Assembly: GCA_026706485.1 (NCBI GenBank)
Contig: JAPOYR010000008.1
Location: 106,558-170,557, forward strand
Source of the DNA: Chloroflexota bacterium
GTDB taxonomy: Bacteria; Chloroflexota; UBA11872
Reading direction: 5' to 3'
Length of the DNA stretch: 64,000 bases
The position numbers and the translations under genes are program-made. This document shows positions 51,022 to 63,446 of this stretch, one piece after another (the stretch's first letter is position 1; each line of letters begins with the position of its first letter). The notes beneath the pieces were generated by a model, which saw only the letters and a list, made by a program, of their open reading frames with translations, had not been told where the DNA came from and did no database searches.

Positions 51022-52128
51022 ATGCCGATGGCCAGCGTCACGCTTGATAACGTCACGAAACGGTTTGGCGACGTTGTCGCCGTCGACGACGTGTCCATCG
51101 AGGTCCAGGACCGAGAGTTTCTCGTGCTCGTGGGGCCGTCGGGCTGTGGCAAGTCCACCACGCTGCGCATGGTCGCGGGGCTTGAGGAGCTGACGGGCGG
51201 CAACATCTACATCGGCGACCGCCTGGTGAACGACGTGCCGCCCAAGGACCGCGACATCGCCATGGTGTTTCAGAGCTACGCCCTCTATCCCCACATGAGC
51301 GTCTACGACAACCTGGCGTTTGGCTTGAAGCTGCGAAAGACGCCCAAGGCCGAGATTCAGCGGCGCGTGGCCGAGGCCGCCGACATGCTGAACATCAGCG
51401 AGTTGATGGAGCGAAAGCCGCGTGCGCTTTCCGGTGGCCAGCGGCAGCGCGTGGCGGTTGGGCGGGCCATCGTGCGCGACCCGGCCGTGTTCCTGATGGA
51501 CGAACCGCTGTCCAACCTGGACGCCAAGCTGCGCGTGCAGACGCGGGCCGAGCTGATTCGCCTGCACGAGCGTTTGCAGGCCACGGTGATCTACGTGACG
51601 CACGACCAGATGGAAGCCATGACCATGGGCACGCGCATCGCGGTGCTGCGGGACGGCGTCTTGCAGCAGTTGGGACCGCCGCAGGAGGTCTATGCGGCGC
51701 CGAGCAACGTGTTCGTAGGCGGATTCATCGGCAGCCCGGCGATGAACTTTTTCGACGCGCGCATCTCGGGCGAGGACGGCTTGTGGGTGGAAACGGAAAC
51801 GCTGCGCGTTCCCGTACCGCCCGACCGGCGAGATGCCGTGGCGCCCCATGCCGGCAAGGACGTGATCTTCGGCATCCGTCCGGAAAACATCGTCGACCCG
51901 CAGTTCGCGGCCGGCGGCGTGACGCACGAGGCGACCATCACGGCGACCGTGGACGTGATGGAGCCGCTAGGCAGCGAGGTCATTCTCTACATGCTGGCGG
52001 GCTCGGACTCATTCGTCGCCCGCGTCGACCCGCGGACCACGGCGCAGGCCAATCAGCCCTTCGAGCTGGCCTTCGAGATGGACCGCATGCACCTGTTCGA
52101 CCGCGCGACGCAGGAGGCGATTGCGTAG
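51022..52128 (+). CDS. ABC transporter ATPase, UgpC/MsmK (MalK-like)
   Basis: 368 residues. Walker A is GPSGCGKSTTLRMVAGLEEL; Q-loop region MVFQSYALYPHMSVYDNLAF is typical of sugar importers; the signature is ALSGGQRQRVAVGRAIVRDP; Walker B is FLMDEPLSNLDAKLRVQ; H-loop YVTHDQMEAMTMG. The C-terminal TOBE domain has GIRPENIV. It should power one or more carbohydrate importers. No permease or binding-protein gene is adjacent, so it probably serves distant systems (common for MsmK-like ATPases). Confidence 0.93.
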   Translation: MPMASVTLDNVTKRFGDVVAVDDVSIEVQDREFLVLVGPSGCGKSTTLRMVAGLEELTGGNIYIGDRLVNDVPPKDRDIAMVFQSYALYPHMSVYDNLAFGLKLRKTPKAEIQRRVAEAADMLNISELMERKPRALSGGQRQRVAVGRAIVRDPAVFLMDEPLSNLDAKLRVQTRAELIRLHERLQATVIYVTHDQMEAMTMGTRIAVLRDGVLQQLGPPQEVYAAPSNVFVGGFIGSPAMNFFDARISGEDGLWVETETLRVPVPPDRRDAVAPHAGKDVIFGIRPENIVDPQFAAGGVTHEATITATVDVMEPLGSEVILYMLAGSDSFVARVDPRTTAQANQPFELAFEMDRMHLFDRATQEAIA

Positions 52129-52291
52129 GAGCGTTCCGGTCACGGACCGCTCAGCATTCGGCGGCGGCCGCGGACATCGGGCAGCGCGCATGGCCTGCCA
52201 GGGCGGCCTTCGCGCTCCTCCGTGGTCGAACCGACGCCCGCGCTCCGAGATGCGCCGACCGCCGATGTTCAATGCCAACGCGCGGACCGTC

Positions 52292-54562
52292 CTATGGGGC
52301 GCCCTGGGTCACCGTGCGTCCCTCGCCGAAATACAGGTCGCCGATGAAACGATCCGCCAAGTCGGCGGCGGCGGGAGCATCGGTCATGAAGGCAAAGATG
52401 AGGTGACATAGCCCAATTTCCATCCCCTCACAGTTGCCGGGAGACACCTTTCCCTGGCCGCTGTCATGAAGTCTCCAGAAGCCTCTGAGGAATAGATCCT
52501 CGCCCAAACCGAAGTAGAGGTTGTGAAACATCAGCGCACCGTTGAAGTAGTGACATTCATGCCAGTCGGAAGAAAGGTCGAGAATCCTCGTGTCTTCGCA
52601 TCGGTCTTGAAGGGGCCTGATCCTTCCCGACCCCATGACGCCGGTTCGCATTTCGAGAAACACCGCGGCCCCTTCACAAATCCAGCTGGGGCATGCGTGC
52701 CAATAGTAGTGCGCGACCTCATGATGAATCGTAGGTTTCAGACTGTTATGGAAATAGTGATTCCGATCGTCATATCCCTCACGTATTGCGATATGCGACC
52801 CAACGAACAATCCACCCCACGGATCAACGACTTCTGATACGTGCAAGGCAATATATCTGGTTGGGAATGGCCGTTTCATGGCCGCTTCGACGGAGCGCAC
52901 GGCTCCTTCCAAGTAGGTCATGGTGACTTCTTCGCCAAGTCTGGTTCGAATGACGGCCAGGATCGTTGGCCCAGTGTGCGGAAGCACTATGTGCCGCTCC
53001 TCGATCCATACCCTGCTTGGATCAAGCATGGCATCCAGGAGTTCCGGTTGGTCGACCACGACATACCAAAGAACGGTGACAATCTTGGCATGGTGATCGG
53101 TAATCCCGCCCTGACCCACGAGGTGCGAGACAATCCGATGCAGATAGTTTCGATCATGGGCGCCTATTCGATGCAAGCTCTCGACGGCTAGCGCGTCAAA
53201 TGGTTCGATCGAATCGAGAAATGGCATTTGCGTCAGATAGAAGGCAATGGTGGGTTCGGTGGTTCCCGGCTGGATCTGATTGAGGGCTTGTCGTTCGTCC
53301 CTCGCGATGATGATCAAATCGTCGACAAGGCCGACTTCTTCGTCCGTCAAGCCGTCTGCCACCCACGGTTTTCGAAGAAGCGATCCAACTAGATTGGGGT
53401 CGTCCCGGGCGACGTCGGTCACACCGTTGATAAAGTCGACGTCTTCATCCGTCACACTGTCCATGACCCACGGGAATTGAATCAGCGAATCTACGAGATC
53501 AGGAAAATGGGCCGCGTGACGAATGAGTTCTTTCAGCAAGTCACGTTCGATCTGGCTTAATCCGTCTTGAGCCCATGGCAGCTCCGCGATATCGGCCAGG
53601 GTCTTGAATTCGAGGACGGTTTCTTGGCTCGGTTGATTGCGTATGGATCCATCCAAGGGATCTTCAATCAGGCTTCGCAGCAACGGCTCTGATGCGGCGA
53701 AGACTCGTTGCAGTTGGCTGATGGCGGATTGCTCCAAGGGTGTGATTCCATCGGCGACCCAGTCGAGCGTGGCGATGATGGCTGGGAGCCCGGGATCGGA
53801 TTCGTACCGGAGCACCTTGGCCGCTTCCGGAATGATCACGTTGCTGAGCTTCTTGACCTTGTCGGGCACGTTCTGGAGATTCACGCGGCCAACGGTGGTG
53901 CCGGGCGCGGGCACGTTCCAGATCACGAACACCGTGCGCTGCGCGCGGAGCATCTGCAGCCCCTGCGGCTGTCCGTTGACCTCTCGCTCTTCGTAGCGGA
54001 TCGGCAGGCCGTAGAGGTTGAGCCAGTCCGGCTCGCTCAAGAACCGTGCCTTGATCGCCTCGTTTTGGTCCAAGAGCGCCAGGTGGTTCCGGATGATGGT
54101 GGCGAAGTCGGCGCCGCGGTCTGCCTCCAGCACCTGGTGGGGCGGGACGTTGGGTAGCTCGATCTCGGGATAGCGGTTCGCCAGGACGTCCAGGGTGTTG
54201 TAGTAGTTCATGCGCTGCTTACCGGGGTCCCACTGCAGGATCACCTTCTGAAAGGCCTGGAAGGTGAAAGGGCCGTTGGTCCAGCGCTGGCTGATGGGGT
54301 AGCCAATGGCGTTCAGGTCGCGTTCCCGAACGAAGTCGTAGAGCGGCACGCCGTCGGCGTTGGTGACGGCGTAGCCATCATCGGGATCCGGAGTGTCGCC
54401 GCCGGTGATGGTGAACAGGCAGCCGTCGTCGAGGGCGATGCCCTCACACTCGAGCGCCGCCGCTGACGGCCAGACCGCGAGCGTGGCCGCGACCGCGACG
54501 GCAGTCGCGACGAGCGCCGTGCGCGGCACACACCACCAATGGCGCTGGCAAATTTGCCGCAT
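52292..54562 (-). CDS. Secreted metalloprotease-like protein with helical repeats (Peptidase MA type)
   Basis: About 756 residues from ATG 54562 (an earlier in-frame ATG at 54619 is less likely). A signal peptide is visible (TALVATAVAVAATLAVWPSA, ending AAALE). The N-terminal domain has an unusual LNAIGYPISQRW and FQAFQKVILQWDPGKQRMNY that recurs in Chloroflexota exoproteins (recalled, not checked). The middle has 35-residue repeats with PWAQDGLSQIE, PWVMDSVTDED and PWVADGLTDEE. Near residue 610 is IHHEVAHYYWHACPSWICEG: HExxH and, after Trp, Glu-Gly, the pattern of Peptidase_MA (gluzincin-like). It probably cleaves extracellular protein. Confidence 0.7.
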   Translation of the reverse strand: MRQICQRHWWCVPRTALVATAVAVAATLAVWPSAAALECEGIALDDGCLFTITGGDTPDPDDGYAVTNADGVPLYDFVRERDLNAIGYPISQRWTNGPFTFQAFQKVILQWDPGKQRMNYYNTLDVLANRYPEIELPNVPPHQVLEADRGADFATIIRNHLALLDQNEAIKARFLSEPDWLNLYGLPIRYEEREVNGQPQGLQMLRAQRTVFVIWNVPAPGTTVGRVNLQNVPDKVKKLSNVIIPEAAKVLRYESDPGLPAIIATLDWVADGITPLEQSAISQLQRVFAASEPLLRSLIEDPLDGSIRNQPSQETVLEFKTLADIAELPWAQDGLSQIERDLLKELIRHAAHFPDLVDSLIQFPWVMDSVTDEDVDFINGVTDVARDDPNLVGSLLRKPWVADGLTDEEVGLVDDLIIIARDERQALNQIQPGTTEPTIAFYLTQMPFLDSIEPFDALAVESLHRIGAHDRNYLHRIVSHLVGQGGITDHHAKIVTVLWYVVVDQPELLDAMLDPSRVWIEERHIVLPHTGPTILAVIRTRLGEEVTMTYLEGAVRSVEAAMKRPFPTRYIALHVSEVVDPWGGLFVGSHIAIREGYDDRNHYFHNSLKPTIHHEVAHYYWHACPSWICEGAAVFLEMRTGVMGSGRIRPLQDRCEDTRILDLSSDWHECHYFNGALMFHNLYFGLGEDLFLRGFWRLHDSGQGKVSPGNCEGMEIGLCHLIFAFMTDAPAAADLADRFIGDLYFGEGRTVTQGAP

Positions 54563-54713
54563 GACGCCCTTCAGGTTGCGGCAGGCCGACCGGGATTCCC
54601 GAAATCCGCCGACCGGCAAGGTGCCGTGGATGCTACTTCACGCGCGGCGCGCGGTCGCCGGTGGACGGCCGAGCCCAGGGCGTCAAGACCGGCGTCGTTG
54701 CAACGTCTGCACG

Positions 54714-57700
54714 TCAGCTGGCTCCGCAGAACGGCAGCCCAAGCGTGCCGAGGTCGTTGTCGTCCACGCCGCGCAGTCCATCGGGGATGCAGCCGCTGAA
54801 TTGGTTGCCGCCAAGGCCCAGCCACTGCAGGTCGTCGAGATCGCCGAGAGTGGCCGGCACCTCGCCGACGAGCTGGTTGTTCCTGAGATCCAGGGTTTGC
54901 AGCCGGCTGAGGTCACCCAACTCCGGCGGGATTTCGCCCTGCAGCCGGTTCTCCGCGAGCAGCAGCGCTCGCAGATTGTCGAGGCTGCCGAAGTCGCGAG
55001 GAATCGTCCCGTGCAACTGGTTTCGCGTGAGCACCAGGTCTTGCAGGTTGGTGAGGAAGCTCAGCTCGCGGGGAAGTGCTCCGCTCAGGGCGTTGTCGCT
55101 GAGCCAGAGCTCCCGCAGCCTGGCCAGGTCTCCCAGCTCCGGCGGGATCGACCCCGTCAACTGGTTGGACTCAAGCCGCAACAACTCCAGTCTCGACAAC
55201 TCGCCCAACTCGGGTGGAATCGGGCCCTCCAGCCGGTTGCCCCCCAGGGAGAGGTGGACGAGGCTGTTCATGCGGCGCAGCTCAGGCGGAATCGATCCAC
55301 TCAATTGGTTCTCATGCAGATACAGCACCTCCAGGTCGAGAAGGCTGCCCAACTCCGGCGGAATCTCGCCCTGCAACCGGTTGACCCCGAGCTCGAGGAT
55401 TCGGAGACCGAAGATGTTGCCAAGCTCGGCGGGAATCTCTCCCTCCAATTCGTTTTTCCAAAGGTGCAGCTCCTTGAGGTACCCGATGTCGCCCAGCTCC
55501 GGCGGGATCGGACCGGTGAGGCGGTTCTCCTGGAGCCACAGTTCCTCGAGGACGTAGATGCGACCCAGCTCGGGCGGAATCCACCCCTCCAACTGGTTCG
55601 TCCCGAGCGCCAAGATCTTCAGACTCGAGAGGCTGCCCAAGTCGGCGGGAATCGCCCCATGCAACGCGTTGTCGGAGAGGCGCAGCTCGATGAGTTCGGT
55701 CAGACGGCCCAACCCGCGTGGAATCTGGCCGCGTAACCCATTCTGGCTGAGGTCAAGGCTGGTGACCCGCCCCCGGCGGTCGGTGACAACGCCGTGCCAT
55801 CGGTTGAGCGGCTCGTTGCTCAGCCATTGTGCGTTGTTGGTCCAGTTCGGACCGTCGGTCGAGTGGTAGAACGCGACCAACACGGTCCGATCGGCGCCGG
55901 ATTGTGGCGATGGCGCCACCGTCGGTGCGGGGTTGGCGGCGCTGCAATCCGGTAGCCCCAGGTTGTCCAGATCGTTGTATTGAATCTTCTGCATCCACTC
56001 CGGAATACATCCCGTCAGCTGGTTGCCGCCGCCGAGGTAGAGCACTTGCAGCCTGGTGAGGTCGTCGAGCTCGGGCGGTATGGCCCCAACCAGCATGTTC
56101 TCGCGGAGCGACAGCGTGTGCAGGTTGGTGAGATTGCCCAGCTCGGGCGGTATCGACCCCGTCAGCTGATTGTCCGCGAGGCTCAGCGTTTGCAGGCGGT
56201 ACAGCAGGCCCAGCACGGGCGGAATCTCGCCGGTGAGGTGGTTCCCACGGAGGCTCAACTCCTGCAGGCTGAAGAGGAAGCCCAGCTCAGCCGGAATCGC
56301 GCCCGTCAGCTCGTTGTTATCCAGCCGAAACGCCGCGAGGGTTCCGAGGTTGCCCAGCTCCGGTGGGATTTCCCCGGTGAGCCGGTTGCCGTCGAGGAAC
56401 AGCGCGCCGAGGCTGAACATGCCCTCCAACGCCGGCGGAATGGCGCCGGTGAGCTGGTTGCTGGTGAGCAGCAGCTGCTTCAGGTTGGCCAGGCGGCCCA
56501 GCTCGGGCGGGATCGATCCGGTGAGCTGGTTGCCCTGGAGCAGCAGATATTCCAGCTTGGCGAGGCGCCCCAACTCCGGCGGAATCGAGCCCGTGAGCTG
56601 GTTGTCGTGGAGCGCCAGGAATTTGAGGTTCGCCAGGCGGCCCAGCTCGGGTGGAATTGAGCCGGAGAGCTGGTTGTCCTCAATCGCCACAAATTCCAGG
56701 TTGGTGAGGCGGCCGAGCTCGGTGGGGATGACTCCAATGAGCTGATTCACCCCCAGCCCGAGCCCCTTCAGGCGGGTGAGATTGCCCAGGGCGGCCGGAA
56801 TCTCGCCACTCAGCTCGTTCTCGCGCACGGAAATTCCCTCGAGGTGTGCCAGGTGTCCCAACTCCGACGGCAGCTCCCCGCGTAGCCGGTTGCCGTGGAG
56901 CACCAACTCCGTCACCCGGCCGCTGTCGTCCGTGGTGACGCCGTGCCATTCGCCGAGGGGCGCCTCGCCGAGCCAGTTGGCGTTGTTCGTCCAATTCGGT
57001 CCGTCGGTGGCGTGGTAGAACGCGACCAGCACCTCGCGGTCCGAGATTGGTTGGGCCGTGGGCGCCGCGGGCGTCGACTGGACGGGCGCGCGCTCGGGGG
57101 CCGTGCAAAATGACAGACCGGTTTCGCGAAAGTCATTGACGCGTACCTTCCCCAGTTCGAGCGGGATGCACCCGGTGAACTGGTTGTCGCCGGCGAGGTG
57201 AAGCGTGACCAGATTCGCAAGCCTGCCGAGCTCGAATGGGAATTCCCCGCCAAGCTGGTTGTAGCCGAGATTCAGCCATTGCAGGTTCGCAAGGCGGCCC
57301 AGCGCGGCCGGGATCGCACCTTGCAACTGGTTGAAGCCGAGCGACAGCCACTGCAGATTTGCGAGCTGGCCCAACTCAGGTGGGATTTCCCCGCTCAGCT
57401 CGTTGTCCGTGAGATCGAGGAGCTGAAGGCTGCTGAGACGGCCCAGCTCGGACGGGATGGTCCCACTGAGCTGGTTTTGGCTGGCTTCGAGCACCGTGAG
57501 GGCTGCCAGATCTCCCAACTCCGGCGGAATTCGCCCTCCGAGCTGGTTTTTGCCGAGCGTCAGGTGCCTCAACGTTTGGAGGCGGCTCAACTCAACCGGG
57601 ATGGTCCCGCTGAACTGGTTCTGGCGGAGGTCGAGCAGCACGAGAGCCGCGAGATCGCCAAGCTCCGGCGGAATCTCCCCGCCTACCTGGTTACTTGCGA

Positions 57701-58721
57701 GCGACAGCACCTGAAGCCTGGCAAGGCGTGCCAACTCGACCGGAATCTCGCCGCTCAGCTGGTTCTCATCAAGCACCAGCCCTTCGAGATTGGCAAGTCG
57801 GCTCAGCTCCGGCGGAATCGTCCCGGTCAACTGGTTGTCGCTGAGCACCAACTCTTCGAGATTGGCCAGGCGGCCCAGCTCGGGCGGAATCGCCCCTCGC
57901 AGGTGGTTGCCATGCAGGTGCAGTTGCTTCAGCTTGGTCAGCGCGCCCAAGTCGGGCGGAATCGTCCCGCTCAATTGGTTCTCATGGAGCAGCAGCACTT
58001 CGAGGCTGGCCAGCCCACGCAGCTCAGGTGGGATTGGCCCGCTGAGCTGGTTGGTGCTCAGCCCGAGGAATAAGAGGCCGGAAAGGCTACCCAGCACGGG
58101 TGGGAGCTCCCCTTGCAGCTGGTTGTCGACCAGCCAGACTTCCGTGACCCGGCCGGCGGCGTTCGCGGTGACGCCGTGCCACTCGTTGAGCGGGGCGTCG
58201 CTCAGCCAGTTGGTGGTGTTGGTCCAGTTGGGGCCGTCGGTCGCGTGGTAGAGCGCGACGAGCACCGCGCGGTCGGCGTCGGGAGTGTCGGCTGGGACCG
58301 GCGCCGCGTCGGGGGCAGGACTGGGAGCGGGTGTCGGCGTGGCGGCCGGCGTTGGGGTCGGGTCGGGCGCAGGCGTCGGCGCCGCCGTGGGGGTAGGGGT
58401 TGGCTGAGGCGTCGGTGTGGGCGAAGGCGCGACCGTCGATGCAGCCGTTGGGTCCGGCGCAGGCGAAGGCGCGACGGTGGCCGTGAGCGTAGCCACGACC
58501 GCTGGCGCCGGTGTTGGCGTTGGGGTGGGCGAGGGCGCCTCCGCCGCAACTGGCGTTGGCGCCGGATCCGCCGGCTCGGACTGGTCGGCGGGGACGTCGC
58601 CGCAAGCTGCCGCGGCCAGCGCAAGGCCAACCAGGAGTGACAGCGCGGCCGTGCGAACGGTCGCGGGCAATCCCTTAACGGCGCCGCGCGCGCCGTCAGG
58701 CACTCGCCGACCCAGGACCAT
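54714..58721 (-). CDS. Giant LRR lipoprotein, three plant-type LRR modules
   Basis: About 1335 residues from the ATG at 58721. A lipoprotein leader (LLVGLALAAAACGD) and a Thr/Pro/Ala linker precede three modules. Each module has an N-cap like RAVLVALYHATDGPNWTNTT, then WHGV and GRVTE, then 24-residue repeats IPPELGxLxxLxxLxLxxNxL (I count 14, 13 and 14 by hand, 41 in all), then a C-cap with two Cys, as GCIPLELGKVRVNDF ... LSFC or GCIPDG ... LGLPFC. The repeats resemble plant receptor-like LRRs. The protein is probably exposed on the cell surface, binding a ligand or partner. An ATG at 58781 is also open upstream. Confidence 0.9.
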   Translation of the reverse strand: MVLGRRVPDGARGAVKGLPATVRTAALSLLVGLALAAAACGDVPADQSEPADPAPTPVAAEAPSPTPTPTPAPAVVATLTATVAPSPAPDPTAASTVAPSPTPTPQPTPTPTAAPTPAPDPTPTPAATPTPAPSPAPDAAPVPADTPDADRAVLVALYHATDGPNWTNTTNWLSDAPLNEWHGVTANAAGRVTEVWLVDNQLQGELPPVLGSLSGLLFLGLSTNQLSGPIPPELRGLASLEVLLLHENQLSGTIPPDLGALTKLKQLHLHGNHLRGAIPPELGRLANLEELVLSDNQLTGTIPPELSRLANLEGLVLDENQLSGEIPVELARLARLQVLSLASNQVGGEIPPELGDLAALVLLDLRQNQFSGTIPVELSRLQTLRHLTLGKNQLGGRIPPELGDLAALTVLEASQNQLSGTIPSELGRLSSLQLLDLTDNELSGEIPPELGQLANLQWLSLGFNQLQGAIPAALGRLANLQWLNLGYNQLGGEFPFELGRLANLVTLHLAGDNQFTGCIPLELGKVRVNDFRETGLSFCTAPERAPVQSTPAAPTAQPISDREVLVAFYHATDGPNWTNNANWLGEAPLGEWHGVTTDDSGRVTELVLHGNRLRGELPSELGHLAHLEGISVRENELSGEIPAALGNLTRLKGLGLGVNQLIGVIPTELGRLTNLEFVAIEDNQLSGSIPPELGRLANLKFLALHDNQLTGSIPPELGRLAKLEYLLLQGNQLTGSIPPELGRLANLKQLLLTSNQLTGAIPPALEGMFSLGALFLDGNRLTGEIPPELGNLGTLAAFRLDNNELTGAIPAELGFLFSLQELSLRGNHLTGEIPPVLGLLYRLQTLSLADNQLTGSIPPELGNLTNLHTLSLRENMLVGAIPPELDDLTRLQVLYLGGGNQLTGCIPEWMQKIQYNDLDNLGLPDCSAANPAPTVAPSPQSGADRTVLVAFYHSTDGPNWTNNAQWLSNEPLNRWHGVVTDRRGRVTSLDLSQNGLRGQIPRGLGRLTELIELRLSDNALHGAIPADLGSLSSLKILALGTNQLEGWIPPELGRIYVLEELWLQENRLTGPIPPELGDIGYLKELHLWKNELEGEIPAELGNIFGLRILELGVNRLQGEIPPELGSLLDLEVLYLHENQLSGSIPPELRRMNSLVHLSLGGNRLEGPIPPELGELSRLELLRLESNQLTGSIPPELGDLARLRELWLSDNALSGALPRELSFLTNLQDLVLTRNQLHGTIPRDFGSLDNLRALLLAENRLQGEIPPELGDLSRLQTLDLRNNQLVGEVPATLGDLDDLQWLGLGGNQFSGCIPDGLRGVDDNDLGTLGLPFCGAS

Positions 58722-58855
58722 GGCGACAGGTTGACACAGGCTGGCGTGGTTGAAGTCCTTCCGCGGGCCACGCCAGAGCATCGAGCGGCGTCAACCGTGC
58801 GCGATCAACCCTGGCTCCAGCAACCCGCCGACGCGCCTGACCATGCGCACGAAAT

Positions 58856-61795
58856 TCAATTGGTTCGGCAGAACGGCAGGCCCAGCCCAGTGAGATCGCC
58901 AAAGACGAGATCAAGCAAACCGTCGGGAATGCACCCGGTGAATCGGTTACCGGCGAGTTGCACCCAGTCGAGATGGGCAAGGTCTCCCAATCCAGGTGGA
59001 ATCTCGCCGCTGAGCTGATTTCCCTCGAGCAACAGACTCTTCAGGTTGGCGAGGTTCCCGAGCTCGGCGGGGATCGGCCCCTGCAATTCGTTGAACGACA
59101 GGCTCAGCTTGGTCAGATTGCTGAGTCGGCCCAACGCCGGCGGAATCATTCCGCTGAACTCGTTCGCCAACAGCACGAGCTGCTCGAGATTGACGAGATC
59201 ACCTAATTCCGGCGGGATCGCACCGCTCAGGCGGTTATTCGCCAGATCCAGCACGGTGAGATTGGCGAGGCCGCCCAACGCGGGTGGGAGGTGACCACTT
59301 AAGGCGTTGTTGCCGAGCCGCAGCTCTTTCAACTTGGCGAGGTTGCCGAGCTCGGGCGGGATTCCGCCGCGCAGCTGGTTGTCGCCGAGGTCCAGCACGG
59401 TGAGACCGGCGAGGCCGCCCAGCGCAGGAAGGATGTAGCCACGCAGCTGGTTATCTTCGAGTTGCAGTTTTGAGACCCGGCCGCCGTTGGTGTCGACGCC
59501 GTGCCAGTCGCTGAGCGGCGCGTCGCTGAGCCAGCTGGTGCTGGTCGTCCAGTTGGGGCCGTCGGCGGCGTGGTAGAAGGCGACCAGCACGTCGCGGTCG
59601 GTGGCGGGCTGGCGGTTGGCGGTTTCACCGCGCGCCGATTCGGTCGTCCCGCAAAACGGCAGGCCAAGCGTGACAAGGTCGCTGTCCTCGACCTGCCGCA
59701 ATGCCTCGGGGATGCACCCGGTCAGTTGATTGCCACCGCTGAGCCTGAGCCACTGCAGGTTGGCCAGGCGGCCCAACTCGGGAGGAATTTCGCCGCTGAG
59801 ATGGTTTCGAGCGAGTCCCAGCTCTTGCAGCTTGGAGAGGTTGCCCAACTCGGGGGGGATCGCCCCTTGCAGCTGGTTGTCCCAGAGCGCCAGCACCCGG
59901 AGTTGGGAGAGGTCGCCCAACTCGGGCGGAATCGTCCCTTGGAGCTGGTTGTCTAAGAGCCCCAGCACTCGCAGATTGTCGAGGCTGCCCAGCGCGGGAG
60001 GAATGGTCCCACCCAACCGGTTGTGCATGAGGAGCAGTTCTCTGAGGTGCGTGAGAAAGCTCAATTCGCGGGGAATCGCCCCACTCAACGCGTTGTAGTA
60101 GAGCCACAAATGCCGCAGCTTGGCGAGGTGGCCCAGCTCAGGCGGGATCTCCCCAGTCAACTGGTTGGACTCGAGGCTCAATATCTCCAGTTGTGACAGC
60201 TCGCCCAACTGCGACGGAAGCTCCCCCCGCAGCCCGTTCTGCCCGAGTCGCAGCTCGGTTACTCGACCGCTGTCGTTCGTGACAACGCCGTGCCACGCGC
60301 GGAGCGGCGCGTCGCTCAGCCAGTTGGCGTTGTTGGTCCAGTTAGGACCGCCGGTCGCGTGGTAGAGCGCAACCAGAACGTCTCGGTCCGAACTGGGCTG
60401 GGGCGTGGGCGTGGGTGTAGGCGTCGGCGTCGGTGTAGGCGTGGGCGTTGCGGTCGGCCGAGGCACCGGGGTAGGCGTGGGTGTTGGGGCCGGCGAGGGG
60501 GTTGGCTGGGTCGCTGCCGCCGGGGTCGTGTTTTGGCGACTTTGGTTTCCGCCAGATTCGCAGAATGGCAGCCCGAGCGACTCGAGATCGCCCTCGACGT
60601 TTCGCACTTCTTCCGGGACGCAGCCCGTGAATTGGTTGCCGCCACTCAGGCTCACGTATGCCCGACCGGCAAGATTGCCCATCTCCGGCGGGATGGCGCC
60701 TGTCAACGAGTTGCGATGGAGCAGCAGCCGTACCAGCCGCGGGAGGCTGCCAAGCTCGGGCGGAATTAGTCCAGTCAAGTTGTTGTCATTGAGAAACAGC
60801 CTGCTCACGCTGGCGAGCCCGCCGAGCTCGGGCGGAATGGGTCCGGAAAGCTCGTTGTGATTGAGCGCCAACTCCAGCAGGTTGGAGAGACGCCCCAACT
60901 CGGCTGGAATGGGGCCGCTCAGCTTGTTCGCGTTGAGACGCAACTGCCTGAGTCCGGACAGGTTGCCCAGCTCGGGCGGAATCTCGCCGCTGAGCCAGTT
61001 GCTCTCGAGCGCCAGAAAGGTCAGCTTTTCGAGGTTACCCAGTTCGGGCGGTATCGGGCCGGTGAGCTGGTTGCCTCTGAGCACCAGGTGCAAAAGGCTG
61101 GCGAGGCCGCCCAGTTCGGGCGGTATCGTGCCGCTGAGCTGGTTGTTTTCGAGCAAGAGCGATTCCAGGTGGGCCAGGCGGCCAAGCTCGGGCGGTATGC
61201 CTCCGCTCAACTCGTTGCCCCCGAGAACCAGCCCCTCCAAGCCGGCAAGATTGCCCAGCTCGGCTGGTATGGCCCCCTGCAAGAAGTTGCCCCAGAGCGC
61301 AAGCCACTCAAGTTTGGACAGCTGGCCCAGTTCGGCCGGAATCGCACCTCGCAGCCGGTTCTCCCCGAGCAGCAGCTTGGTGACCCGCCCGTCGTCGTCG
61401 TCCGTCGTTACGCCGTGCCAGGTGAAGAGCGGCGCGTCGCTGAGCCAGTTGGTGTTGTTCGCCCAGTTGGGTCCGTCGGTCGCGTGGTAGAAGGCAATCA
61501 GCGCGTTGCGGTCGGAGGCGGGTGAATCGACCGAGGCTGGCGCCGCCTCCCTCACCGGACTCGGCGCGGGCGCGGCGGTTGGGGTCGGACTCGGCGTCGG
61601 CGTCGCTTCGGGCGTGGGCGTGGGGCTCGGGACTAGAGGACTGGGCGCGGGCGTCGCTTCCGGCGCGTCGGTCGCATCGCCGCAGGCCGCCAGGGCCAGC
61701 GCAAGGACGAATGCGAGCGCAGCCGCGCGAATGGTCAGCGGCAATCCCGCCGCGGCGCCGCGCGCGTCGTGAAATCCTCGGCGACGTAGGACCAT
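58856..61795 (-). CDS. Second giant LRR lipoprotein, three plant-type LRR modules
   Basis: About 979 residues from ATG 61795 (frame open to 61924). Leader ALAFVLALALAACGDATDAP ends in a lipobox and Gly-Asp. A Thr/Pro linker follows and further Thr/Pro stretches separate modules ([16 protein letters not shown]). Three LRR modules contain about 11, 8 and 8 repeats, each with the cap HATDGPNWANNTNWLSDAPL (or HATGGPNWTNN, HAADGPNWTTS) and a two-Cys C-cap (GCVPEEVRNVEGD ... LPFC). It is a paralogue of the upstream LRR gene, sharing leader words and the bases before the ATG, so it arose by tandem duplication. Confidence 0.9.
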   Translation of the reverse strand: MVLRRRGFHDARGAAAGLPLTIRAAALAFVLALALAACGDATDAPEATPAPSPLVPSPTPTPEATPTPSPTPTAAPAPSPVREAAPASVDSPASDRNALIAFYHATDGPNWANNTNWLSDAPLFTWHGVTTDDDDGRVTKLLLGENRLRGAIPAELGQLSKLEWLALWGNFLQGAIPAELGNLAGLEGLVLGGNELSGGIPPELGRLAHLESLLLENNQLSGTIPPELGGLASLLHLVLRGNQLTGPIPPELGNLEKLTFLALESNWLSGEIPPELGNLSGLRQLRLNANKLSGPIPAELGRLSNLLELALNHNELSGPIPPELGGLASVSRLFLNDNNLTGLIPPELGSLPRLVRLLLHRNSLTGAIPPEMGNLAGRAYVSLSGGNQFTGCVPEEVRNVEGDLESLGLPFCESGGNQSRQNTTPAAATQPTPSPAPTPTPTPVPRPTATPTPTPTPTPTPTPTPQPSSDRDVLVALYHATGGPNWTNNANWLSDAPLRAWHGVVTNDSGRVTELRLGQNGLRGELPSQLGELSQLEILSLESNQLTGEIPPELGHLAKLRHLWLYYNALSGAIPRELSFLTHLRELLLMHNRLGGTIPPALGSLDNLRVLGLLDNQLQGTIPPELGDLSQLRVLALWDNQLQGAIPPELGNLSKLQELGLARNHLSGEIPPELGRLANLQWLRLSGGNQLTGCIPEALRQVEDSDLVTLGLPFCGTTESARGETANRQPATDRDVLVAFYHAADGPNWTTSTSWLSDAPLSDWHGVDTNGGRVSKLQLEDNQLRGYILPALGGLAGLTVLDLGDNQLRGGIPPELGNLAKLKELRLGNNALSGHLPPALGGLANLTVLDLANNRLSGAIPPELGDLVNLEQLVLLANEFSGMIPPALGRLSNLTKLSLSFNELQGPIPAELGNLANLKSLLLEGNQLSGEIPPGLGDLAHLDWVQLAGNRFTGCIPDGLLDLVFGDLTGLGLPFCRTN

Positions 61796-61922
61796 GGCGA
61801 CAGACTGACACAGACGCGTTGCGCCGCGATCTTGCGCGCGCCACGCCAATGCACCCCAGCTGAACCGGACCCCGCGGCCGAACGCTACGCTGGGGCGTCG
61901 CACGCACCCTTTCCGAGGCGCC

Positions 61923-63446
61923 ATGTTTCTCGCCTATGCCCCTGATCGGATCGCCAAGGACATTGGCGACGATCGCCAGCTCTTCCTCGACGACGACGTG
62001 GTCGCGGTGGTCAAGAACGTCACCCGCCGCTTCCACCACCCGGTCAAGCATCCCGCCAACCCGGTGATCGAGAACGACCAGCCGTGGGAAGTGGTGCCTT
62101 ACTTCCGCAGCTGCTCGTTCAATGTCCTGCAGGATCCGGAGGATGGGCTTTTCAAGTGCTGGTACGAGGATTATCCGAACTACTGGGGCAGCAAGGGCGT
62201 GCCGCGGCTCGGGAGCCGCATCTACTACGCCCAGTCGACGGACGGGATCACCTGGGAGAAGCCGCTGCTGGGGCGCCACACGATCGACGGCCAGGACACG
62301 AACACGCTCATCGTGTCGCCGGACGCCAACGACGAGTCCACCCTGTTCCCGTCGATCATGCTGGACCCGATCGAGACGGACCACAGCCGCCGGTTCAAGA
62401 AGGTCCACGTCTATCGCGTCGGCAGGCGCGGGATGGGGCTGGGCCTGGCGATGTCGGGCAACGGCCTCGATTGGACCCGGCATCCCGCCAACCCGATCAT
62501 CCCGGAGTGGGCAGCGGACTGCCAGGTGCTGACGTACGACTCGATCGACGAGAAGTATGTGCTCTGGGGACGCTACGGCGACTCCGCGGGCGAGGCCTGG
62601 CACCCCGAGTTCGACCACTGGTTCGCCCCGGTGTGGCCGAGCCAGCCCGAGGGTGTGTGGGGCACGCGCCGCCGGGTCTGGCGGCAGGAAAGCCAGGACC
62701 TGGTCAACTGGTCGACAGCGGAGCTGATCTTCGAACCGGGTCCGGCGGACAACCTGGACGATGGGCACTACAGCTTCGTGCCCTGGCGCGCGGGCGAAAT
62801 GCACCTGGGCATCCTCAACATGCTGCACACGGTGGACGACACGCTGGACATGTACCTGCACTACAGCCGCGACGGACACCAGTGGCATCGGTTTAACGAT
62901 CACCGGCCGTTCATTCCCCGCGGTCCCGAAGGGTCCTACGACGCGCTGGACAACGAGACGACGGTGCAGCCGCTCGTGGTGGGGGATGAGCTGTGGTTCT
63001 ACTACGGCGGCAACAACATTCATCACGACTGGTGGATCATCGGCAGCGGACAGGGTCTGGACGTGCCGGAGGTCCACGACCCGAGTATCGCGGCCAATGG
63101 CCACCACCTGTGCCTGGCCACGCTGCGCTACGACGGCTACGTGTCGCTGGACGCCACGGTGCGCGAGGGCTACGTGGAGACCAAGCCGGTGCGGCCGACG
63201 GGCGGTCAGCTCTTCATCAACGCCCGCTGCGAGCCCGGCGGCTACATCGAAGCCGAGGTGATGGACCCGTACAACGGCGTGTGGCCGGGCTTCGAGCGCT
63301 CCACCTGCCGGCGGTTCGAGGGCGACAGCATCCGCCACAACCTCACCTGGACGGGCGGCGCGCCCGGCGACCTGCGGGGGGGCCTCAAGCTGCGCTTCCA
63401 CCTGCGAGGGGCCGAGCTGTATAGCTTCCGGTTTGGGAGCGAGTGA
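61923..63446 (+). CDS. Beta-propeller glycosidase-like protein (GH43/GH32-like)
   Basis: 507 residues, no signal peptide seen. It starts MFLAYAPDRIAKDIGDDRQL and has repeated strand-turn elements typical of five-bladed propellers: FKCWYEDYPNYWGSKGVPRL, IYYAQSTDGITWEKPLLGRH, LAMSGNGLDWTRHPANPIIP, SRDGHQWHRFNDHRPFIPRG. The recurring 'S-DG-xxW' resembles the GH43/GH32 and related bacterial families, but I do not identify all three catalytic acids. Function is likely sugar cleavage or binding. It starts 127 bases from the divergent LRR lipoprotein, in a short shared promoter region. Confidence 0.6.
   Translation: MFLAYAPDRIAKDIGDDRQLFLDDDVVAVVKNVTRRFHHPVKHPANPVIENDQPWEVVPYFRSCSFNVLQDPEDGLFKCWYEDYPNYWGSKGVPRLGSRIYYAQSTDGITWEKPLLGRHTIDGQDTNTLIVSPDANDESTLFPSIMLDPIETDHSRRFKKVHVYRVGRRGMGLGLAMSGNGLDWTRHPANPIIPEWAADCQVLTYDSIDEKYVLWGRYGDSAGEAWHPEFDHWFAPVWPSQPEGVWGTRRRVWRQESQDLVNWSTAELIFEPGPADNLDDGHYSFVPWRAGEMHLGILNMLHTVDDTLDMYLHYSRDGHQWHRFNDHRPFIPRGPEGSYDALDNETTVQPLVVGDELWFYYGGNNIHHDWWIIGSGQGLDVPEVHDPSIAANGHHLCLATLRYDGYVSLDATVREGYVETKPVRPTGGQLFINARCEPGGYIEAEVMDPYNGVWPGFERSTCRRFEGDSIRHNLTWTGGAPGDLRGGLKLRFHLRGAELYSFRFGSE

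What the first reader, a model, noticed from the sequence alone, without database searches (positions are those of the whole stretch)
54714..61795. Two tandem giant LRR lipoproteins carrying six capped plant-type LRR modules
Seen: two adjacent minus-strand genes encode about 1335 and 979 residues with lipoprotein leaders and six modules. Each module has a cap around 'HATDGPNWTNN...W', a run of IPPELG-type repeats and a two-Cys end 'GCIP ... LGLPFC'. Hand count: 41 and 27 repeats. Plant-type LRRs in bacteria are often tied to host or surface interaction (established). Inference: variable surface receptors, expanding by module duplication; paralogue pair suggests ongoing amplification.
Basis: partly seen in the sequence, partly recalled or inferred. 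Interest (0 to 1): 0.62.

Follow-up and report, generated by a model that had tools for sequence, protein, structure and literature searches.

The report
Swappable surface repeat proteins in sponge bacteria
Two neighbouring genes of a probable sponge-symbiont bacterium make large cell-surface proteins built from chains of plant-receptor-like repeat blocks, and related species gain, lose or rebuild these genes at one fixed chromosomal spot, which fits a role in recognising the host or neighbouring microbes.

Summary
In detail: two minus-strand genes carry six capped modules with 41 and 27 strict 24-residue plant-type LRRs, behind probable lipoprotein leaders and Pro/Thr stalks. A predicted module (pLDDT 96) matches plant receptor-kinase ectodomains. 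Five congeneric genomes show the pair sits on an island (52129-61882) between two conserved genes. The island is cleanly absent in two, reduced to one fragment in one, and holds three or four LRR genes in two. Gene A keeps 11/8/8 repeats in three species; gene B varies (14/13/14, 16/13/14, 21/14). So variability is real, but 'ongoing module duplication' is not supported: every window module is closest to its same-position counterpart in another species, and modules within a gene are only 58-65% alike. dN/dS is 0.32-0.44 against 0.03-0.07 in flanks. Capped relatives occur in genomes of seven phyla, many sponge-derived; the two-Cys end is nearly confined to Chloroflexota (39/46 versus 1/28). Most likely these are surface adhesins or recognition proteins of a sponge symbiont. 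LRR enrichment there is already published (PMC8163846, PMC6306507). New variant of a known kind.

The parts
54714..58781 (-).
58602..58781 (-). Leader of gene B up to the lipobox-like Cys (AAAC, residue 60)
   Evidence: sequence; AAAC is a weaker lipobox than LAAC; no predictor run
58287..58601 (-). Pro/Thr-rich stalk of gene B (residues 61-165)
   Evidence: sequence
57105..58286 (-). Gene B module 1: cap, 14 LRR rows, end cap
55944..57053 (-). Gene B module 2: cap, 13 LRR rows, end cap
54726..55904 (-). Gene B module 3: cap, 14 LRR rows, end cap
58856..61924 (-).
61682..61924 (-). Leader of gene A up to the lipobox Cys (LAAC, residue 81); the true start probably lies inside this stretch
   Evidence: sequence; upstream codons not conserved between species
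61526..61681 (-). Pro/Thr-rich stalk of gene A (residues 82-133)
   Evidence: sequence
60560..61525 (-). Gene A module 1: 11 LRR rows
59651..60400 (-). Gene A module 2: 8 LRR rows
58868..59611 (-). Gene A module 3: 8 LRR rows; folded model with mean pLDDT 96.3
52292..54619 (-). P0003: exported protein with a shared head domain and an M1-like metallopeptidase tail, carried on the same island
53765..54514 (-). P0003 head domain (residues 36-285), also found in front of LRR, RCC1, PD40 and, more distantly, M23 tails
52310..53323 (-). P0003 tail (residues 433-770), M1 gluzincin fold with HEVAH and a downstream Glu
   Evidence: VIA-align Z 18.1, rmsd 2.7, 212 residues on 6a8z; HExxH seen
52129..61882 (.). 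Island absent in two of six congeneric species, whose flanks abut at 52128|61883
51022..52128 (+). Left flank: sugar-type ABC transporter ATPase (MalK-like), one closely similar copy next to the site in all five relatives
61923..63446 (+). Right flank: conserved 507-aa protein without Pfam match, 94-98% identical in all six species

Best explanation
The two genes encode cell-surface lipoproteins of a Chloroflexota bacterium that is probably a sponge symbiont. Each has a lipid anchor and a Pro/Thr stalk that should lift three independent plant-type LRR solenoids off the membrane. Each solenoid is closed by a W-rich N-cap and a two-Cys C-cap. They have no transmembrane, kinase or catalytic domain, so they most likely act by binding: as adhesins or recognition proteins for proteins, peptides or glycans of the sponge or of co-resident microbes. 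Different repeat numbers and exposed residues would tune what is bound. Between species the repertoire changes by whole-gene gain and loss at fixed chromosomal addresses and by in-frame gain or loss of repeats and modules, not by a recent burst of module duplication. Shown here: repeat architecture, fold class, island presence/absence, repeat-number differences, constraint on the framework with relaxed exposed positions. Inferred: lipid anchoring, surface exposure, the sponge habitat of this genome itself, the binding role and its target.
For: Architecture and counts; plant receptor ectodomains as best sequence and fold matches with a confident model. Island empty in G002 and G005, one LRR fragment in G001, three or four LRR genes in G003 and G004. 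Gene B differs from its G004 orthologue by exactly 48 aa, two repeats. Two other LRR loci of this genome also have conserved flanks and varying gene content across the genus. LRR genes evolve with dN/dS 0.32-0.44 against 0.03-0.07 for the flanks; framework positions 0.08, exposed 0.48-0.54. All six genus members carry capped LRR genes. PMC8163846 covers Coscinoderma and Rhopaloeides MAGs and PMC9531527 uses jk18x names for Ircinia MAGs. LRR enrichment in sponge symbionts is published.
Against: No ligand, expression or localisation data. Signal-peptide calls are by eye; gene B's AAAC is a weak lipobox. dN/dS is not above 1 overall, and the concave face (0.54) is hardly faster than other exposed positions (0.48), so there is no sign of an arms race at a binding face. 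Gene A has a fixed repeat number in three species. LRR proteins of unrelated function are common.
Confidence: 0.6

Rival explanations
1. Molecular mimicry: the LRR proteins work as eukaryotic-like decoys that dampen uptake by sponge phagocytic cells, as reported for ankyrin-repeat proteins of sponge symbionts, rather than as adhesins.
For: Eukaryotic-like repeat proteins incl. LRR are enriched in sponge symbionts, and repeat proteins of this broad kind are reported to confer evasion of phagocytosis when expressed in E. coli (PMC8163846, PMC6306507). The modules resemble eukaryotic receptor ectodomains.
Against: Closest resemblance is to plant, not animal, LRR receptors. No published LRR example was found in the searches made. 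The reported case is ankyrin proteins, a different fold, while these proteins seem to be anchored on the bacterial surface.
Confidence: 0.18
2. The proteins act in nutrient capture: LRR modules hold glycans or proteins at the surface for the island peptidase and the neighbouring sugar-transport genes.
For: The island lies between a MalK-like ABC ATPase gene and a conserved 507-aa gene, and carries an M1-like peptidase.
Against: In the empty sites the two flank genes adjoin without the island, so they do not need it. The LRR genes are on the opposite strand, and P0003 is absent from the same place in G004, while G003 has a head-LRR gene there instead.
Confidence: 0.1
3. Neutral surface filler or decaying repeat genes: turnover reflects relaxed selection and repeat slippage, with no specific binding role.
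For: Elevated dN/dS, absence in two species, a remnant ORF in G001, and an in-frame TAG in gene A of G004.
Against: Framework positions are strongly constrained (dN/dS 0.08), reading frames of 3-4 kb stay open, gene A keeps 11/8/8 repeats in three species, and all six species keep capped LRR genes somewhere.
Confidence: 0.1

Closest known systems
LRR class of eukaryotic-like repeat proteins of sponge symbionts (PMC8163846, PMC6306507, PMC9531527)
   Same: Bacterial LRR proteins in sponge-derived Chloroflexota and other phyla
   Different: Those papers, as far as read here, report domain counts; the chained capped modules, the Chloroflexota two-Cys end and the presence/absence island are not described in the passages seen
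Plant LRR receptor kinase ectodomains (MIK2, FLS2, GSO1, PEPR1, BRI1)
   Same: 24-residue LxxLxLxxNxLxGxIPxxLGxLxx repeat, same solenoid fold, W.G[VI] stretch of the N-terminal cap aligned to FLS2 and PEPR1
   Different: No kinase, no transmembrane segment, N-cap without the plant Cys pair, several short solenoids in a chain; bacterial lipoprotein-like leader
Leptospira LRR proteins (LIC11098, LIC10831) and internalins
   Same: Bacterial LRR proteins that match by sequence
   Different: Far below the family cut-offs where one exists (internalin A 169.8 against 1600 bits); plant receptors score much higher than the Leptospira chains

Membership tests
Plant-type (PS) LRR proteins | 24-residue LxxLxLxxNxLxGxIPxxLGxLxx consensus | tested here: met
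   All 68 rows fall in the 24-residue register (the last row of some modules carries one extra residue); per-position residues
Plant-type (PS) LRR proteins | Solenoid fold like plant receptor ectodomains | tested here: met
   Model pLDDT 96.3; Foldseek best match MIK2 2.7e-18, TMq 0.67; FLS2 TMq 0.90
Plant LRR receptor kinases | Transmembrane helix and cytoplasmic kinase domain | tested here: not met
   Pfam finds no kinase, only LRR families and insignificant hits; the sequences end right after the last module
Plant LRRNT_2 N-cap | Cap with paired cysteines and Pfam LRRNT_2 match | tested here: not met
   No LRRNT_2 among Pfam hits up to E=1; EWHGVTT stands where FLS2 has NWTGITC
Bacterial lipoproteins | Hydrophobic leader ending in a lipobox Cys | tested here: inconclusive
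   LAAC in gene A, AAAC in gene B by eye; no predictor and no experiment
Internalins, XopAE/XopAC/XopL and LIC_11051 LRR families | Score above the curated NCBIfam cut-off | tested here: not met
   For example XopAE 296.6 against 600, internalin A 169.8 against 1600 bits
Sponge-symbiont eukaryotic-like LRR proteins | LRR protein in a genome from a sponge | tested here: inconclusive
M1 metallopeptidases (P0003 tail) | Thermolysin-like fold with HExxH and downstream Glu | tested here: met
   VIA-align Z 18.1, rmsd 2.7 over 212 residues with 6a8z; HEVAH-x11-E, a shorter spacing than the x18 of classical M1 (own knowledge), so close M1 membership is open

The most novel reading that the evidence does not exclude
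Sponge-symbiont Chloroflexota carry a modular display system: fixed chromosomal addresses where capped-LRR genes are gained, lost and rebuilt between species, together with a conserved exported head domain joined to interchangeable tails (LRR, RCC1, PD40, M1-like). The repertoire would set which sponge or which partner microbes a symbiont can bind, a bacterial counterpart of repertoire-based recognition.
Probability: 0.2. Interest if true: 0.72.

Novelty: new variant of a known kind. Interest (0 to 1): 0.42.

Why it matters
How many unrelated bacteria live stably inside sponges is an old open question, and in the papers read here LRR proteins are counted rather than dissected. Here the working unit (one capped module) is defined, predicted with confidence and small enough to express. 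A clean empty site in close relatives gives a natural with/without comparison for tying a repertoire to a host.

Tried and rejected
Recent module duplication: rejected by nearest-module comparison. Positive selection on the concave face: not seen. Tail swapping in place at P0003: not supported, because its head is closer to a head at another address in G004 (85%) than to the syntenic G003 head (78%). Phage carriage: only two viral contigs at 47% identity to the cap. Known defence system: no PADLOC hit worth following (PD-T4-6 at 16.9 bits on the low-complexity stalk). Cross-phylum transfer: the 118-column tree is poorly resolved (39 of 77 branches open), with phyla interleaved but clustered more than by shuffling (19 changes against 26.9), so neither pure inheritance nor transfer is shown. 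The head domain folded poorly and has no Pfam or convincing PDB sequence match, so its resemblance to LGFP-type repeats stays a recollection.

Full report
Observation. The window (G000:C8:106558-170557; genome 3.37 Mb) carries two adjacent minus-strand genes, called gene B (54714-58781) and gene A (58856-61924) here. Six caps of the form DR..L.A[FL]YH[AS][TA][DG]GPNW...W...PL..WHGV open the modules and GC[IV]P...C closes them. The outer start of gene A overlaps the start of the neighbouring + strand gene and its upstream codons are not conserved in G004, so the long ORF is probably not the real protein.

Nature of the repeats. Pfam gives LRR families only. The closest solved sequences are plant LRR receptor ectodomains. 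A single module (gene A module 3 with nine relatives) folds with mean pLDDT 96.3 and matches plant receptors such as MIK2, GSO1 and FLS2. The W.G[VI] part of the cap aligns with the plant N-cap, but the plant cysteines are missing. Curated bacterial LRR families (internalin A, XopAE, XopAC, XopL, LIC_11051) all score far below their cut-offs.

The genome. At least eight capped LRR genes with 18 modules lie at four loci fetched here; a further single-module LRR protein is at C12. Gene A, gene B and the two genes of L023 have lipobox-like leaders. The 1564-aa protein of L021 and the head-bearing proteins have ordinary-looking signal peptides, so there may be two export routes (by eye).

Island. 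The flanking genes, a MalK-like ATPase (51022-52128) and a conserved 507-aa protein (61923-63446), are highly similar in all six congeneric genomes. In G002 and G005 they abut exactly at window 52128|61883. In G001 a 207-aa LRR ORF without an intact cap lies between them. G003 holds three LRR genes plus a head-LRR gene, G004 three LRR genes. The flank tree is ((G000,G003),G004,(G001,(G002,G005))) unrooted, so one gain, or one loss with decay in G001, explains the pattern; its direction is not known. The empty site reads GCGTAGCGCTACGC, a perfect 14-bp palindrome with the insertion near its centre; this was noticed afterwards and its meaning is unknown.

Variability. Gene A keeps 11/8/8 rows in G000, G003 and G004 (the G004 copy has an in-frame TAG in module 1). 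Gene B has 14/13/14 rows in G000, 16/13/14 in G004 (an exact two-repeat difference) and only two modules, 21/14, in G003 (the scripted spans usually omit one row per module). Gene C (12 rows) exists in G003 and G004 but not here. Two further LRR loci, L021 and L023, also keep their flanks across the genus while gene content changes.

Tempo. For five of the six window modules the nearest relative is the same-position module in G003 or G004 at 80-95% identity, and 73% for gene B module 1; the best match within the same gene is 58-65%. The duplications that made the modules are therefore older than these species. Overall dN/dS is 0.32-0.44 against 0.03-0.07 in flank genes; framework positions 0.08, concave-face positions 0.54, other positions 0.48. 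This is constraint on the scaffold with relaxed exposed positions, not proven diversifying selection. The stalk alignments are unreliable, so the non-LRR values carry little weight.

Distribution. Within the phylum, 29 of 301 sampled genomes (9 of 179 genera) have the cap, 25 of them in the window's own class. A scan of 84,980 species genomes gave 206 confirmed stretches; the best 74 loci come from Chloroflexota, Gemmatimonadota, Latescibacterota, Acidobacteriota, Bacteroidota, Pseudomonadota and Verrucomicrobiota. Isolate names COS, RHO, CAR, IRC and APA fit the sponge species of PMC8163846 (initials; inferred), and jk18x names are used in PMC9531527 for Ircinia MAGs. Together that is 35 of 74 loci. 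The other isolate codes (SB, OX/OY, p16x, Plut, CO and others) were not traced. The query is itself from this group, so enrichment is likely but not measured against a background. The two-Cys end is present downstream of 39 of 46 Chloroflexota caps and 1 of 28 others.

Neighbour P0003. The third island gene (52292-54619) is an exported protein whose C-terminal part has the M1 metallopeptidase fold. Its 235-aa head recurs in all six genomes, at 75-85% identity in the closest copies, in front of LRR modules (L021, L022, L129, L134, L136, L140, L147), RCC1 repeats (L194, L198, L205) and PD40 repeats (L176), and more distantly before M23 peptidase tails (L203). The head has no Pfam match.

Reading. 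The best-supported explanation is a surface-displayed binding protein of a probable sponge symbiont, with a repertoire that turns over by gene gain and loss at fixed addresses. The ligand and the host effect are inferred. Published work already reports LRR enrichment in sponge symbionts, including SAR202 and Caldilineae (PMC6306507, PMC8163846), so this is a variant of a known kind. What is added is the module definition, the lineage-specific end cap, the empty-site comparison and the shared head domain.

Noticed in passing
window 52292-54619; L194, L198, L176, L203, L129: A conserved ~235-aa exported head domain without Pfam match is joined to LRR, RCC1, PD40, M1-like and (distantly) M23 tails, many copies per genome.
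   Followed up: partly
window 52128|61883; L192 10073-10074; L193 3354-3355: The empty island site is a perfect 14-bp palindrome GCGTAGCGCTACGC and the island sits near its centre.
   Followed up: no
window 58723-58738 and 61797-61812 (-); L129, L130: A 16-base element TGTGTCAACCTGTCGC (up to 3 mismatches) lies upstream of LRR genes A, B and (where present) C of this locus in three species, and was not found upstream of the LRR genes at the other loci scanned; possibly regulatory.
   Followed up: partly
L130 4702-7870: Gene A of G004 has an in-frame TAG in its first module although the frame is otherwise open; real or assembly error not known.
   Followed up: no
L021 10595-12697 and L023 5347-8781: Two LRR proteins share a C-terminal domain of roughly 140 aa ending in VPNP; Pfam finds nothing there in the one scanned (L021).
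   Followed up: no
window 61923-63446: The right flank protein has no Pfam match but 7-11 matches per genome (paralogues or fragments) across the genus.
   Followed up: no
L129 6560-8053 and L130 12224-13678: Gene C of G003 and G004 has an unusually low dS in its LRR part (0.064) against 0.264 elsewhere in the gene, which may mean recombination between lineages or an alignment artefact in the stalk.
   Followed up: no
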